A stretch of DNA of 52,605 nt, taken from an uncultured Pseudomonadota bacterium (GTDB lineage: Bacteria > Myxococcota_A > UBA796 > SXON01). Below are positions 26,992 to 46,972 of this stretch, piece by piece. The position numbers and the translations under genes were made by a program. The DNA is taken from positions 1 through 52,605 of the forward strand of contig CAIXRH010000249.1 in assembly GCA_903921785.1 (NCBI GenBank). Direction: 5' to 3'. Under the pieces are notes generated by a model. That model saw only the letters and a program-made list of their open reading frames with translations, did not search any database and had not been told where the DNA came from. How positions within the stretch are numbered: position 1 is the stretch's first letter; every line of letters begins with the position of its first letter.

Positions 26992-28257
26992 GTGCGACGC
27001 TCGGGTGTGCTCGTCACGCGCCCGTCCCCGCGTCGTTCTCTGCGCTGGTTCCGCCGTTTCCGGTACACGTTCCTCCCCGTCCTCGCGCTCGGCGGGGTGC
27101 TGGAGCGCTTCAGCGACGCCAGCTACGACGGAGGCGCGCTCGCGCAGTTCCTCCTCGCGGCGTTGGCGCTGGAGATCCTCGAACGGGCCCTGGTCACCCG
27201 CTTCGGCCCGTCGGCCGCGGTCCTCCCGCTTCAGGTGGCGCTCACCTTGGGGCAACTCGCGGGCGGCGCGTGGTTGCTCCGGGCCGCCGACCACCCCGGC
27301 CTCGACATGCTGGTGCAGTTCGTGGTGCCGTGCGCGCTCACCCTCTCCCCGCCGATGGCGTGGATGTCCGCCCTGCTGCTCATCGGCGTACACAACGGCC
27401 TGGTGCTGTTTGGCCCCCGTGTCGGGCCGGTCGAGCTCGACGTCTTCGGGATGGTGGCGGCGCGACAGCTCCAGCAGCTCCTGGTGTTCGACGCCTCGGT
27501 CGTGGCGCTCACGCTCACGGTCATCCGGGTCCGCGACCTGCTCAACGACCGCGAAGCCCGCCTGCACGCCGCCCTCGAAGATCACGCCCGCGACGAACGC
27601 TTCGTGTCGCTCGGCATCCTCTCCGCAGGCATCGCGCACGAGCTCGGCACCCCGCTGTCCTCGATCGACCTGCTCGCCTCGGAGGCGTTGGCGGACCCGG
27701 AGAGCACGCGCGAGGCGCTCACCACACTGCGGGGGCAGGTGCAACGGTGTCGGGAGATTCTCGACCGGCTGCGTGGCGGCACCGCGTGGACGGTCTCCAA
27801 CGAAGTCGAAGCGTTCGGGCCGTGCCTGCGGCGGTGGGTGGCGGACTGGCAGAGCGCGGGCCTCGATCGCGGGCAGCTCCGCCTGGAGGTGGCTGCCGGG
27901 CTCGAGCTGCTGGCGGTCGCCGGTGACCCAGACACCTGGAGGGGGATCGTCTGGTCGCTCCTCGACAACGCCGCTCGGGCCGGCTTCCCGATCGTCGTGC
28001 GGGCGGACGCCGCGGGGGATGTGCTCCTGGAGATCGACGACGGCGGCCAGGGCCCCACGGCCCAGGTGATCGCCCAGGCGGGCGAGGCGTTTCATTCACG
28101 GTGGGGCGACGGCGGCCGAGAAGGGCGGGGGTTGGCGCTCTTCGTGGCCACTTCGTTCGCCCGTCGCTGGGGCGGGGACCTGCGGCTCTCCCGTAGGCCC
28201 GGTGGGGGTGGTCGGGTCGCGGTTCGCCTTGCTACAATCCCGCGAGAGGCGAGCTGA
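26992..28257 (+). CDS. regB: Membrane sensor histidine kinase, RegB/PrrB-like
   Basis: A GTG at 26992 with GGAG five bases upstream gives 421 residues (alternatives: ATG 26950, GTG 27007). After a basic N-terminus come about five or six membrane helices, then the kinase core: H-box AGIAHELGTPLSSID with His216, N-box LLDNAARAG, G-boxes DDGGQGP and GREGRGLALF. HELGTPL is the RegB/PrrB/ActS form. Cys253, in QRCREIL, 37 residues after His216, sits near where RegB has its redox-active Cys. The quinone-linked GGxxNPF motif was not found. It is followed 2 bp later by its RegA-like partner. Likely senses respiratory redox state. Confidence 0.85.
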   Translation: MRRSGVLVTRPSPRRSLRWFRRFRYTFLPVLALGGVLERFSDASYDGGALAQFLLAALALEILERALVTRFGPSAAVLPLQVALTLGQLAGGAWLLRAADHPGLDMLVQFVVPCALTLSPPMAWMSALLLIGVHNGLVLFGPRVGPVELDVFGMVAARQLQQLLVFDASVVALTLTVIRVRDLLNDREARLHAALEDHARDERFVSLGILSAGIAHELGTPLSSIDLLASEALADPESTREALTTLRGQVQRCREILDRLRGGTAWTVSNEVEAFGPCLRRWVADWQSAGLDRGQLRLEVAAGLELLAVAGDPDTWRGIVWSLLDNAARAGFPIVVRADAAGDVLLEIDDGGQGPTAQVIAQAGEAFHSRWGDGGREGRGLALFVATSFARRWGGDLRLSRRPGGGGRVAVRLATIPREAS

Positions 28258-43574: not shown

Positions 43575-45391
43575 TCCAGGTAGCCTAGCGCGCGCAGCCG
43601 CTCTTCGTCTTCTTTGTCGAGCGCCTGGGTCTTCTTGGGCGCGACCACCGGCTTGCCGCTGAGCCAGGCCGCAAAACGTTTGGCGAGCTCCTTCGCGGGT
43701 TTCCGCTCCTTTCCGCTGAGCTCGGCGAGCTCATTCGGGTCGGTCGCCACGTTCCAGGCCTGCAAAAGTGCGCCGCGGGGGTCGGTGATCACCTTCAGGC
43801 CATCCGCCCCGTGGACTGCGTAGCGCAGGTTCTCACTTCGCCCGACCACGGAGGTGACCCACCCGCGCGGCGGGCTCGGCTTGCCCTCCAGCTCCGCGCG
43901 GAGGCTTCGGCCCGCGAACCCCGGCAGGTCCCCGGCGCCCGCGTAGTCGAGCAGCGTGGGCAGCACGTCGAGATGGCTGGTGAGGCCCGTGACGCGGCCG
44001 TTTCCGGTGACCACGCCTGGCCCCCACGCGACCATGGGCACGTGGAGATCGTGGTCGTAGAGGCTGCCGTGGCAGAAGTAGCGGTCGTGGTCGGTCATCG
44101 ACTCACCGTGGTCGGCGGTGATGAGGACCAGGGTGTCGTCGCGGTCGGTGAGGCGGAGGTAGTCCACCAGCCGGCCGATCTCGGAGTCGGTGAACGCGAG
44201 GTCGCCGTCGTAGGAGGCGACGTAGTGGCGGCGTTCGACCTTGCCGTTGTCGTAGACGTACTTGGGGATCTCCGCAGCGCCTTCGGCCCGCTCTCCGGGG
44301 AGGAGCTTCATCGTGTCCGCCGCCCAGAGCGGGTCCCCGGCGAAGAGCGCCTTGAAGCGTGCCGGGGGACGGTACGGGCCGTGCGGGTCGAAGTAGTGGA
44401 CCCACAAGAACAGGTTGTCGGCCTGGTGCGAGGTGAGGAAGGGGATCAGCTCGTCGTTGAGCACGTTCGCCGGCGTGTCGTTCGGGTGGTTCCGGTAATA
44501 GTGGAAACCCTTATTCAGGCCGTAGCGGTTGCTCAGGACATACTGCACGTTGAACGCTGCGGTGACGTACCCGGCCTGGGCGAGCAGCTCCGCCGCGGTG
44601 GGGGCGTTCGCGCCCAGGCTGGGGATGTTGTCCACGAACCCGAGCGTGGTCGGGAACTGCCCGGTGATGAGCGACGCGAGCGAGGGGTGGGTGTACGGCG
44701 CTGGCGCGTAGTGTTGGTCGAAGCTCACCCCTTCGCTGATGAGCCCGTCGAGGTTCGGGGTGGTGTTCCGGGGGTAGCCGTACGCGTGCACATGGTCGCG
44801 CCGGAACGCCTCCACCGACACCACCACGATCCGGCGGATCGGCAGGGATGCCGTGCGGCTCTCCGCGGTGAGCGCCTCCAAGGTGATCGGCGCGAGGTCG
44901 AACGAGCCGGCCGCCTCCGGCCGCTGCATCTGCACCTCGATGCAGACGAAGGCGGAGTTGCCTCCCGCCGGCACCGTGGAGGTGATCTCCACCTCCTCCC
45001 AGGGGAACGCGCCCACGTCGATCCGCCGTCGTGCGACGTGGAGCTCCCCCTTGGGACCGCCGATGTGCAGGTGCATCGCGGTGACGTCTTCGAGCGAGGC
45101 CGAACCCCGGACGCGGCTGTGCAGCCGGAGGGTGGCGCCGTCGGGCACGGCCACCTGGGGCGAGCAGATGCTGGCGCGGGTGCCGGCCGGCCACTTCACG
45201 GTGGTGGAGCCCGCCTCCTTCCCCGCCGTGAAGCTCAGCCCGCCCTTCTCGGCGACGGTAACCCACCCGTCGGGGACCCCGTCTGCCGGCGCCGCGTCCG
45301 TGAGCAGGTTGGCGTTGGGGATCGCCACCGGGGCGGTGGTGACGTGGAGCGGCGACTGCGCGAACGCGAAGCTGGCGACGAAGGCGAGCAC
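43571..45391 (-). CDS. Exported sulfatase-fold (alkaline phosphatase superfamily) hydrolase with Thr at the nucleophile position
   Basis: GTG 45391 gives 606 residues and a short uncharged signal (VLAFVASFAFA, cut before Gln). Residues ~20-180 are a beta-rich domain. The hydrolase part has VVVSVEAFRRDHV, YAPAPYTHPSLASLITG, HYFDPHGPY, ITADHGES and VPMVAWGPG, and the tail RALGYLE. Where sulfatases have Cys/Ser-x-Pro-x-Arg for formylglycine, this has Thr234-His-Pro-Ser-Leu, so it is probably not a formylglycine sulfatase. Thr is the nucleophile in LtaS-like phosphoglycerol transferases. First gene of the operon; no Shine-Dalgarno. Confidence 0.8.
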   Translation of the reverse strand: MLAFVASFAFAQSPLHVTTAPVAIPNANLLTDAAPADGVPDGWVTVAEKGGLSFTAGKEAGSTTVKWPAGTRASICSPQVAVPDGATLRLHSRVRGSASLEDVTAMHLHIGGPKGELHVARRRIDVGAFPWEEVEITSTVPAGGNSAFVCIEVQMQRPEAAGSFDLAPITLEALTAESRTASLPIRRIVVVSVEAFRRDHVHAYGYPRNTTPNLDGLISEGVSFDQHYAPAPYTHPSLASLITGQFPTTLGFVDNIPSLGANAPTAAELLAQAGYVTAAFNVQYVLSNRYGLNKGFHYYRNHPNDTPANVLNDELIPFLTSHQADNLFLWVHYFDPHGPYRPPARFKALFAGDPLWAADTMKLLPGERAEGAAEIPKYVYDNGKVERRHYVASYDGDLAFTDSEIGRLVDYLRLTDRDDTLVLITADHGESMTDHDRYFCHGSLYDHDLHVPMVAWGPGVVTGNGRVTGLTSHLDVLPTLLDYAGAGDLPGFAGRSLRAELEGKPSPPRGWVTSVVGRSENLRYAVHGADGLKVITDPRGALLQAWNVATDPNELAELSGKERKPAKELAKRFAAWLSGKPVVAPKKTQALDKEDEERLRALGYLE

Positions 45392-45458
45392 GGAGAACGT
45401 GTAACCACCGGGCCGCGACCGTTCCGGTATTCGGCCCCGCTCGGCCCGCCGTACGCGG

Positions 45459-45920
45459 CTACCGCCCGAAGTCGCGCGCCATCACCGTCTTGCGGCCTTC
45501 GGAGCGTGCGCGGATGATCGCCTCGCGCGTGGCCTCCCGCACGATGTCGCTGAGCGCCTCCATCACGTCGGCCGCCGTGTTGAACTGGGACTCGTCCCGG
45601 ACGAAGTCCTTGAGGCGGCTGGCGATGATCAGCACGTCCTCGGCCTCCTTCGGGGCCACCCCGCCGGGCCGCACCACCCGGCGCTCGGGCTCGTGGGGCG
45701 CCGCGATCCCGCCCGCGGGCGGCTTGGGCGCGAATTCTTCCACCGCCCAGGTGCCCGAGCGGTGGTTCATCGAGGGATTGTGGGCATCCCAGCAAGAGAC
45801 CGAGCAGAACACCAGCTGAAACCGACCGGAGTTGCAGGTGGACACGCTGCAGCGGTAGTAGCGGGCGCCCCAGGCGATGGCCTTCTTGCAGGTGGAGCAG
45901 GTCTTCCAGGGTTCGAGCAT
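45459..45920 (-). CDS. Zinc-finger protein with C-terminal histone fold
   Basis: The 153-residue protein has an N-terminal Cys/His cluster (Cys8, 11, 24, 29, 39, 43, His47, His53), enough for two zinc sites. A flexible Pro-rich stretch leads to residues ~93-153, which read as a single histone fold: EAEDVLIIASRLKDFV, then DVMEALSDIVREATREAI (long central helix), then GRKTVMARDF. In archaeal histones the same place holds GRKT with Arg52, Thr54 and Asp59; here Arg143, Thr145 and Asp150 have the same spacing. It is likely a DNA-binding protein. The third helix is very short. Divergent from the sigma factor gene, 27 bp apart. Confidence 0.75.
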   Translation of the reverse strand: MLEPWKTCSTCKKAIAWGARYYRCSVSTCNSGRFQLVFCSVSCWDAHNPSMNHRSGTWAVEEFAPKPPAGGIAAPHEPERRVVRPGGVAPKEAEDVLIIASRLKDFVRDESQFNTAADVMEALSDIVREATREAIIRARSEGRKTVMARDFGR

Positions 45921-45947
45921 ACGACGAGTTATCCCGGTGGCGCTCCG

Positions 45948-46769
45948 ATGACCGACTTCGCCGACCCCGCGCTCCTCGCCCGCGCCCGCGAGGGGGACGA
46001 CGCCGCCGTAGAGGCGCTGCTCGTCCGCCACGCCCCCCGGGTGCTCCGTTTCGCGCGCTCGATCTGCCGCGATTCCGTCCTGGCGGACGACATCGCCCAG
46101 GACTCGCTGGTCACCGCGGCACGCGCGCTCAAAGACGTGCGCGCCGACGCGGCGCTCAGCAGCTGGTTCTACGCCGTGGTGCGCAGCCACTGCCGGCGGC
46201 GCAATCGGCGCGGCAAACACGCCCCCACCGAGCTGCTGGTGGACGTGCCGCTCGCCGACCACCGCCCCGGCCCCGAGGCCCTCGCCGCCGACCGGGAGCT
46301 CGGCGTGTCCCTGCGCGGCGCCATCGCCGTGCTCGATCCGAAGTACCGCGACGTGCTCCTGCTCCGCGACGTGGAGGGGCTCACCGCCCCCGAGGTGGCG
46401 GAGGTGCTCGGCCTGCAGGTGGACACGGTGAAGACGCGGCTGCACCGGGCCCGCGCCGCGGTTCGCTCCCGCATCGAGCCGCAGCTCGAACGTTCCCGCG
46501 CGCGCACGCCCGCGTGCTTCGACGTGGTGGAGCGGTTTTCTCGGTACCTCGAGGGCGAGATCGGCGCGGTCGAGTGCTCCACCCTGCACGCGCATGTGGA
46601 GGGATGTCCCTCCTGTAACGCCGCGTGTGCCTCGCTCCGACGGACGCTCTCCGCCTGCAAGGCGGCCGGCGACGAGATCCCGGAAGACGTCGAGGCTCGC
46701 GTGCGTCTTGCGCTCGCGACGGTGGTCGGCCTGGTGAACGACGCGAGCGAAAAACCAGGGACGCGGTGA
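45948..46769 (+). CDS. ECF-type sigma factor with fused C-terminal zinc (ZAS-like) domain
   Basis: The 273-residue protein has region 2 (VRHAPRVLRFARSICRD, DDIAQDSLVTAARAL, WFYAVVRSHCRRRNRR) and region 4 (LDPKYRDVLLLRDVEGLT, EVAEVLGLQVDTVKTRLHRAR) of extracytoplasmic-function sigma factors. The ~85 extra residues at the end carry Cys210 and HVEGCPSC (His216, Cys220, Cys223), the HxxxCxxC zinc motif of ZAS anti-sigma factors. A built-in anti-sigma module would allow control by thiol or metal state. No separate anti-sigma gene follows. The tail is cytoplasmic, with no membrane helix. Confidence 0.88.
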   Translation: MTDFADPALLARAREGDDAAVEALLVRHAPRVLRFARSICRDSVLADDIAQDSLVTAARALKDVRADAALSSWFYAVVRSHCRRRNRRGKHAPTELLVDVPLADHRPGPEALAADRELGVSLRGAIAVLDPKYRDVLLLRDVEGLTAPEVAEVLGLQVDTVKTRLHRARAAVRSRIEPQLERSRARTPACFDVVERFSRYLEGEIGAVECSTLHAHVEGCPSCNAACASLRRTLSACKAAGDEIPEDVEARVRLALATVVGLVNDASEKPGTR

Positions 46770-46816: not shown

Positions 46817-46972
46817 ATGTGCATGCGTGTTTCGTGTCCCAAGTGCGGCAAGCCCACGTTCTCCGGCTGCGGCGCCCACATCGAGCAGGTCCTCGGCGAC
46901 GTTCCGAAAGAACAGCGCTGCAAGTGCCGCGAAGAGGCGGTGAAGAAGCCGTCGATCCCCGGCAGCCGCTAG
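46817..46972 (+). CDS. Conserved 51-residue Cys-rich small protein
   Basis: A short ORF starting MCMRVSCPKCGKPTFSGCG and continuing with AHIEQVLGDVPKEQRCKC. This arrangement (CPKCGKPTxxGCGxH...V...RCxC) is a small family I recall from bacteria and some eukaryotes with no known function; it probably binds one zinc. It starts 47 bp after the sigma factor gene and may share its transcript. No Shine-Dalgarno is evident. Ends 4 bp before the convergent permease gene. Confidence 0.72.
   Translation: MCMRVSCPKCGKPTFSGCGAHIEQVLGDVPKEQRCKCREEAVKKPSIPGSR

What the first reader, a model, noticed from the sequence alone, without database searches (positions are those of the whole stretch)
45459..45920. 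Bacterial histone fold joined to a Cys/His zinc domain
Residues 93-153 fit a single histone fold, and GRKTVMARDF reproduces the archaeal histone loop with Arg, Thr and Asp at matching spacing (Arg52/Thr54/Asp59 in HMfB numbering). The N-terminal 55 residues have six Cys and two His in a pattern expected to bind zinc. Bacterial histones are recent additions to the field, and zinc-finger forms have only been outlined from genome surveys. The gene is divergent from a sigma factor by 27 bp, so a regulatory rather than a packaging role is worth considering.
Basis: partly seen in the sequence, partly recalled or inferred. Interest (0 to 1): 0.8.

Follow-up and report, generated by a model that had tools for sequence, protein, structure and literature searches.

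The report
Zinc-finger bacterial histone (ZZ histone)
This gene encodes a small bacterial histone joined to a zinc-binding domain, a member of the recently named but functionally untested 'ZZ histone' family, whose zinc part turns out also to exist alone in relatives where no such histone was found.

Summary
Window 45459-45920 (-) encodes 153 residues: a Cys6-His2 zinc domain (residues 5-63), a flexible linker, and one short-alpha3 histone fold (95-151). The fold is shown by sequence (Bd0055/HBb, E 6e-9; family profile 5.5e-18) and by structure prediction (HBb Z 8.5, HMfB Z 5.8). This is the known 'ZZ histone' family (Schwab 2024), so it is a new member, not a new kind. Most of HBb's DNA-contact residues are kept. 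The face-to-face tetramer residue N52 is absent in 66 of 66, which favours a DNA-bending dimer. The divergent sigma factor is not conserved (0 of 68 related loci), so a regulatory link through it is unsupported.

What I add, and did not find in the papers searched: (1) all 80 relatives examined share one ligand spacing, with C-x3-C at ligands 5-6; by sequence the domain leans to VATC/HIT/FCS treble clefs, by fold (weakly) to ZZ domains. (2) 16 stand-alone zinc-domain genes; 8 of those genomes had no detected histone of this kind. (3) A basic [RK]R-hV linker motif in 39 of 66 (shuffles: mean 1). (4) Three zinc proteins with two histone folds.

The parts
45459..45920 (-). ZZ-histone gene, 153 aa, ATG start
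   Evidence: alignments of 27 and 66 sequences
45732..45908 (-). N-terminal zinc domain, residues 5-63; ligands C8 C11 C24 C29 C39 C43 H47 H53, spacing C-x2-C-x12-C-x4-C-x9-C-x3-C-x3-H-x5-H
   Evidence: invariant ligands; spacing in 80 of 80 loci; AlphaFold2 of the domain alone mean pLDDT 91
45666..45686 (-). Basic linker motif ERRVVRP, residues 79-85, in an otherwise variable, low-confidence linker
   Evidence: R81 invariant in 27; [RK]R(x)hV-type motif in 39 of 66 sequences against a mean of 1.0 (maximum 5) in 500 shuffles of the 63 linkers that could be delimited
45468..45638 (-). Histone fold, residues 95-151: helix 1 100-111, helix 2 119-140, very short helix 3 at about 148-150
45468..45497 (-). 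Loop 2 / helix 3 DNA-binding motif GRKTVMARDF (R143 K144 T145 R149 D150)
   Evidence: R143 66/66, T145 65/66, R149 65/66, D150 66/66
45921..45947 (.). 27-bp gap to the divergent ECF sigma factor gene (45948-46769, +); adjacency not conserved
   Evidence: no consensus sigma-70 promoter or terminator in 45300-46200

Best explanation
It is a ZZ histone. SHOWN: sequence and predicted fold of a short-alpha3 histone domain, eight invariant Cys/His ligands, and conserved DNA-contact positions. INFERRED: the histone domain dimerises through helix 2 and, like HBb, grips the minor groove with the start of helix 1 (S101, R102, K104, R108), loop 1 (N114) and loop 2 (K144, T145, R149), bending DNA without sequence specificity. 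INFERRED: the arginine-rich spot in the linker, some 10-20 residues before helix 1, adds a tail-like DNA contact near where helix 1 meets the minor groove. INFERRED, least certain: the two-zinc domain is not the DNA reader but a docking module that binds a peptide or protein, so each bent site displays two docking modules. I expect a low-abundance accessory protein rather than the bulk packer, because the genome also has four HU/IHF-family genes and no second histone of this kind was found.
For: Histone domain. Of the ten HBb DNA-contact residues listed in PMC11317129 (passage), six are identical in the window protein (S9, K12, N22, K52, T53, R57), two are K-to-R (K10, K16) and two are Ala (T8, S24); family counts are. 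Dimer rather than tetramer: the position of FtF N52 is E141 here and never N in 66 of 66 (motif numbering from PMC11390915). Zinc: ligands invariant and one spacing in 80 of 80; the lone-domain model is confident, and ZZ domains lead its Foldseek list and recur in the VIA list (weak: Foldseek E 0.17 and worse, VIA Z up to 4.6). Zinc domain as an independent module: 16 stand-alone genes. Accessory role: one histone match and four HU/IHF-family matches in the own genome; the Bdellovibrio ZZ histone is reported as very lowly expressed (PMC11390915, passage).
Against: No binding, zinc or dimer data exist here; only monomers were predicted (pTM 0.48 for the full length). The histone domain has net charge -1, poor for a strong non-specific DNA binder. 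The T8 and S24 equivalents are Ala in the window, and T8 is kept in only 1 of 66. FtF position R48 is Arg in the window protein and in 22 of 66, so that tetramer mark is mixed. Schwab et al. [quoted passage not shown] A review states that both Bd0055 and Bd3044 are essential (PMC11318664, passage), which would fit a weightier role if right.
Confidence: 0.55

Rival explanations
1. The zinc domain itself is a second DNA- or RNA-binding element (treble clef), so the protein bridges two nucleic-acid segments or reads a structure; the histone part is an anchor.
For: By sequence the domain leans to treble clefs (VATC 31 of 62 members, best E 9e-4; also zf-HIT, zf-FCS), all below Pfam cut-offs. Residues 1-66 have net charge +4, with invariant K12, R33 and R54 in 27 sequences. 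VIA also lists ribosomal zinc proteins and PARP-1 Zn2 at Z 3.3-4.4.
Against: All matches are weak; ZZ domains lead the Foldseek list. No surface or docking test was possible.
Confidence: 0.25
2. A regulator tied to the neighbouring ECF sigma factor, for example its anti-sigma or co-regulator.
For: 27-bp divergent arrangement; the sigma protein carries its own C-terminal zf-HC2 domain.
Against: Adjacency found in 1 of 69 loci only; sigma matches in the genus lie on other contigs; no neighbour is shared widely.
Confidence: 0.05
3. The zinc domain reads tails of other histones, as eukaryotic ZZ domains read H3.
For: Weak fold likeness to ZZ domains of HERC2, SAGA and RSC proteins (the subunit names Ada2 and Rsc8 are recalled).
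Against: The own genome has no second histone of this kind; eight genomes carry the zinc domain alone with none detected; Schwab et al. call it unlikely.
Confidence: 0.05
4. A main chromatin protein that packages the genome, as HBb is in Bdellovibrio.
For: DNA-contact residues kept.
Against: Four HU/IHF-family genes in the genome; patchy presence, 32 of 63 in the order; low expression of the Bdellovibrio relative in print.
Confidence: 0.1

Closest known systems
ZZ histones (Schwab et al. 2024, PMC11390915; example D0LYE7 of Haliangium ochraceum; Bdellovibrio Bd3044 by elimination)
   Same: N-terminal two-site zinc domain (C4 and C2H2) plus C-terminal bacterial-dimer-like histone fold; same order of ligands and same relative position of the two His
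   Different: The printed ligand numbers (C51, C53) imply C-x1-C at ligands 5-6; all 80 loci examined here have C-x3-C, so the printed number looks like a slip (D0LYE7 itself was not read). The linker motif, stand-alone zinc genes and two-fold forms were not mentioned in the passages read.
Bacterial dimer histone HBb / Bd0055 (8cmp, 8fvx, 9ezz, 9f0e)
   Same: Histone domain: 34% identity, Z 8.5, rmsd 1.4 over 59 residues; RKT...RD motif and most DNA-contact residues
   Different: HBb lacks the zinc domain and linker
Face-to-face (FtF) histones HLp, HTkC
   Same: Short alpha3 fold, Z 8.1-8.3
   Different: Tetramer residue N52 absent in 66 of 66 of this family
Eukaryotic ZZ, HIT, MYND, VATC zinc domains
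   Same: Two-zinc cross-brace/treble-clef type arrangement (inferred from ligands and weak fold matches)
   Different: No sequence match above any Pfam cut-off

Membership tests
ZZ histones | C-terminal alpha3-truncated histone fold like bacterial dimers | tested here: met
ZZ histones | N-terminal domain with the ligands of a C4 and a C2H2 zinc site | tested here: met
   Eight ligands invariant in 66; metal binding itself not tested
ZZ histones | Zinc domain structurally like eukaryotic ZZ domains | tested here: inconclusive
   Foldseek top hits are ZZ domains but E is 0.17 or worse; VIA Z 4.6 at best, mixed with ribosomal and other zinc folds. PF00569 is not among the families shown (25 of 29).
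Bacterial dimer histones | Lack of FtF R48 and N52 | tested here: inconclusive
   N52 absent in 66 of 66; R48 position is Arg in the window protein and in 22 of 66
Bacterial dimer histones | RKTxxxD and basic residues on helix 1 | tested here: met
   R143, K144, T145, D150; R102, K104, R108
Bacterial dimer histones | Forms dimers and bends DNA | not testable with these tools
   Only monomer prediction available
FtF histones | Tetramer residue N52 | tested here: not met
   Glu141 in the window; never Asn in 66
Pfam CBFD_NFYB_HMF (PF00808) | Score above the curated cut-off | tested here: not met
   13.9 bits against 21.4

The most novel reading that the evidence does not exclude
The zinc half is not a histone accessory but an independent bacterial docking or nucleic-acid module (CSVSTCN finger) of Myxococcota and neighbours. 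It exists as free 60-75 aa proteins, including in genomes without a detected histone of this kind, and was once or more joined to a dimeric histone that delivers it to bent DNA; a doublet form carries one zinc domain per two histone folds. If so, the 'ZZ histone' is a bacterial example of a chromatin-tethered adaptor.
Probability: 0.35. Interest if true: 0.65.

Novelty: new member of a known kind. Interest (0 to 1): 0.45.

Why it matters
ZZ histones were named only from a survey, and in the papers searched here nobody reports what they do. The free zinc proteins, found in genomes without a detected partner histone, give a clean way to separate the functions of the two halves, and they argue against the idea that the zinc domain reads histone tails. 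The conserved linker arginines give a specific site to mutate. The fixed ligand spacing lets the zinc finger be searched as a family of its own, which Pfam does not hold above cut-off.

Tried and rejected
Gene neighbourhood: a rough gene caller and clustering on 69 loci gave no widely shared neighbour. The caller is crude; in the window it merged the histone into a longer frame and missed the sigma factor. tblastn with the window's sigma factor at E 1e-3 is not very sensitive: a sigma-like gene about 8.5 kb away in four loci (cluster 17) was not picked up, so distantly related sigma factors next to other histones cannot be fully excluded.

12 of the 80 loci were dropped by my first pattern and were checked afterwards; they have the same ligand spacing. 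They are not in the 66-row alignment A3; nor are L063, L072 and L079, so A3 is 65 loci plus the window. One search gave 64 of 68 in the exact spacing; the other four came out shifted by one, which I put down to a double Cys and the greedy pattern, and all 68 of these loci plus the window matched the exact spacing. The genome-contig scan itself used two peptide patterns, one of which presupposes C-W-D-x-H; neither presupposes C-x3-C.

PHROGs and NCBIfam gave no family above cut-off for the histone protein. The PDB sequence search with the zinc profile gave only chance-level hits (ZMYM5 E 0.46). VIA lists are second looks at Foldseek's hits; families absent there are not excluded. The tree of the zinc domain has only 62 columns and many open forks: 11 stand-alone genes fall on one side of a branch (94/92), five others sit among fusions; the direction of fusion or loss is not settled. 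Absence of a histone in a genome rests on draft assemblies and on a first look after which only 16 candidates a genome were scored. Two further zinc-only genomes (G039, G056) were set aside because the match lies at a contig end. A promoter/terminator scan of 45300-46200 found nothing. Literature: searches; no paper in those listings was seen to report stand-alone relatives, the linker motif or zinc doublets. PMC11390915, PMC12701072, PMC10627809, PMC11317129 and PMC11318664 were read as passages only; supplements were not readable.

Full report
What is there. The minus-strand ORF 45459-45920 encodes 153 residues. The first 55 residues hold six Cys and two His, and residues 95-151 match the Bdellovibrio histone Bd0055/HBb at E 6e-9, with HTkC, HLp and, weakly, HMfB behind it. 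Pfam's histone model alone would have missed it. A profile of 66 sequences raises HBb to 5.5e-18 and reaches archaeal histones (HMfB 0.0035). AlphaFold2 gives a zinc domain (block means of residues 1-60 from 92 to 97 pLDDT), a loose linker (block means 53-62 over residues 71-100) and helices at 100-111 and 119-140 with a remnant third helix. The best PDB folds are HBb (VIA Z 8.5, 59 residues, rmsd 1.4), HLp 8.3 and HTkC 8.1, with HMfA 6.1 and HMfB 5.8 behind (Foldseek).

Family. 32 of 63 genomes of the order have a match, one of them doubtful. In 377 genomes of the phylum, the whole-protein profile matches 143, the histone profile 136 and the zinc profile 126. A scan of named genomes gave 151 relatives, of which the best 80 were fetched, mostly labelled Deltaproteobacteria, Myxococcota and Bdellovibrionota; a few 'Klebsiella' and 'Bifidobacterium' labels look like misnamed MAGs (inference). 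All eight ligands are invariant in the 27-row and 66-row alignments, and the spacing C-x2-C-x12-C-x4-C-x9-C-x3-C-x3-H-x5-H holds in all 80 loci.

This is the 'ZZ histone' group of Schwab et al. 2024 (PMC11390915; [quoted passage not shown] The group is known; in the papers searched I saw no functional study of it. Bdellovibrio's second histone Bd3044 is probably its ZZ histone (by elimination).

How it may work. HBb contacts DNA with T8, S9, K10, K12, K16, N22, S24, K52, T53, R57 (PMC11317129, passage). Mapped on the window (HBb number plus 92), six are identical, two are K-to-R, two are Ala; over 66 sequences S9 is 66/66, K10 and K12 basic 66/66, N22 57/66, S24 61/66, T53 65/66, R57 65/66, but T8 only 1/66. 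R143 and D150, the clamp pair, are 66/66. So the DNA-binding face is mostly kept. The FtF tetramer residue N52 is never Asn (66/66), while the R48 position is Arg in 22 of 66, the window included. I therefore expect an HBb-like dimer. The histone half has net charge -1, which argues for modest affinity. In the linker a [RK]R-hV motif recurs in 39 of 66 sequences, against a mean of 1.0 and a maximum of 5 in 500 shuffles of 63 linkers. Relatedness inflates such counts, but the motif is kept while linker length ranges from 34 to 89 residues, and one relative has it twice (L168). I read it as a tail-like DNA contact; this is inference.

The zinc domain. Alone it is predicted well (pLDDT 91). Foldseek's top rows are ZZ domains of p62, KCMF1 and BIG, but only at E 0.17 and worse. 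VIA's best is a chain of the RSC complex (Z 4.6), with SAGA, p62, CBP and HERC2 at 3.6-4.1 among other small zinc folds. So 'ZZ' is acceptable for the fold but is not shown by sequence. Schwab's text gives C51 and C53 for ligands 5-6; the loci here all have three residues between them.

Stand-alone zinc proteins. 16 genomes carry the domain as a closed gene that ends just after it. In eight of them (G125, G185, G251, G316, G328, G330, G342, G362) neither the whole-protein nor the histone profile finds a histone half. In seven (G101, G133, G299, G307, G332, G365, G368) a stand-alone copy sits in a genome that also has a fusion. The last, G334, has a weak separate histone match. In a tree of 69 fused and 16 lone domains, 11 lone ones group apart and five lie among fusions (few columns). 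This speaks against a zinc domain whose only job is to read a partner histone.

Doublets. L072 (the same protein as G162, L166), G247 and G153 have one zinc domain followed by two histone folds in one frame: three distinct proteins.

Context. The divergent ECF sigma factor (45948-46769, with zf-HC2) is adjacent in the window only (1 of 69 loci). Same-genus matches to it are 36-39% identical and on other contigs than the histone. The downstream sulfatase (PF00884) and sugar epimerase are likewise not shared with most relatives. The genome has four HU/IHF-family genes and this single histone, so I favour an accessory, DNA-bending adaptor over a bulk packer.

Verdict. Observation confirmed; new member of a known, functionally unexplored family; the sigma-linked regulatory idea is not supported. 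The most open and interesting point is the independence of the zinc domain.

Noticed in passing
L072 (and L166), L165, L167: Zinc domain followed by two histone folds in one protein, three distinct cases.
   Followed up: partly
L148-L156, L158-L164: Stand-alone 60-75 aa zinc-domain genes of the same family in 16 genomes, eight without a detected histone.
   Followed up: partly
L140 (G120): Zinc half and histone half lie in different frames a few hundred bases apart: frameshift in the assembly or a broken gene.
   Followed up: no
window 46817-46972 (+): Small Cys-rich ORF (MCMRVSCPKCGKPTFSGCGAHIEQVLGDVPKEQRCKC...) just after the sigma factor; looks like a small zinc protein, no Pfam match at 0.001.
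   Followed up: no
window 27417-27506 (+): tRNA-Arg (TCG), the only tRNA in the window.
   Followed up: no
L033, L040, L047, L051: Records labelled Klebsiella pneumoniae or Bifidobacterium breve that group with Myxococcota-like MAGs; probably misnamed records.
   Followed up: no
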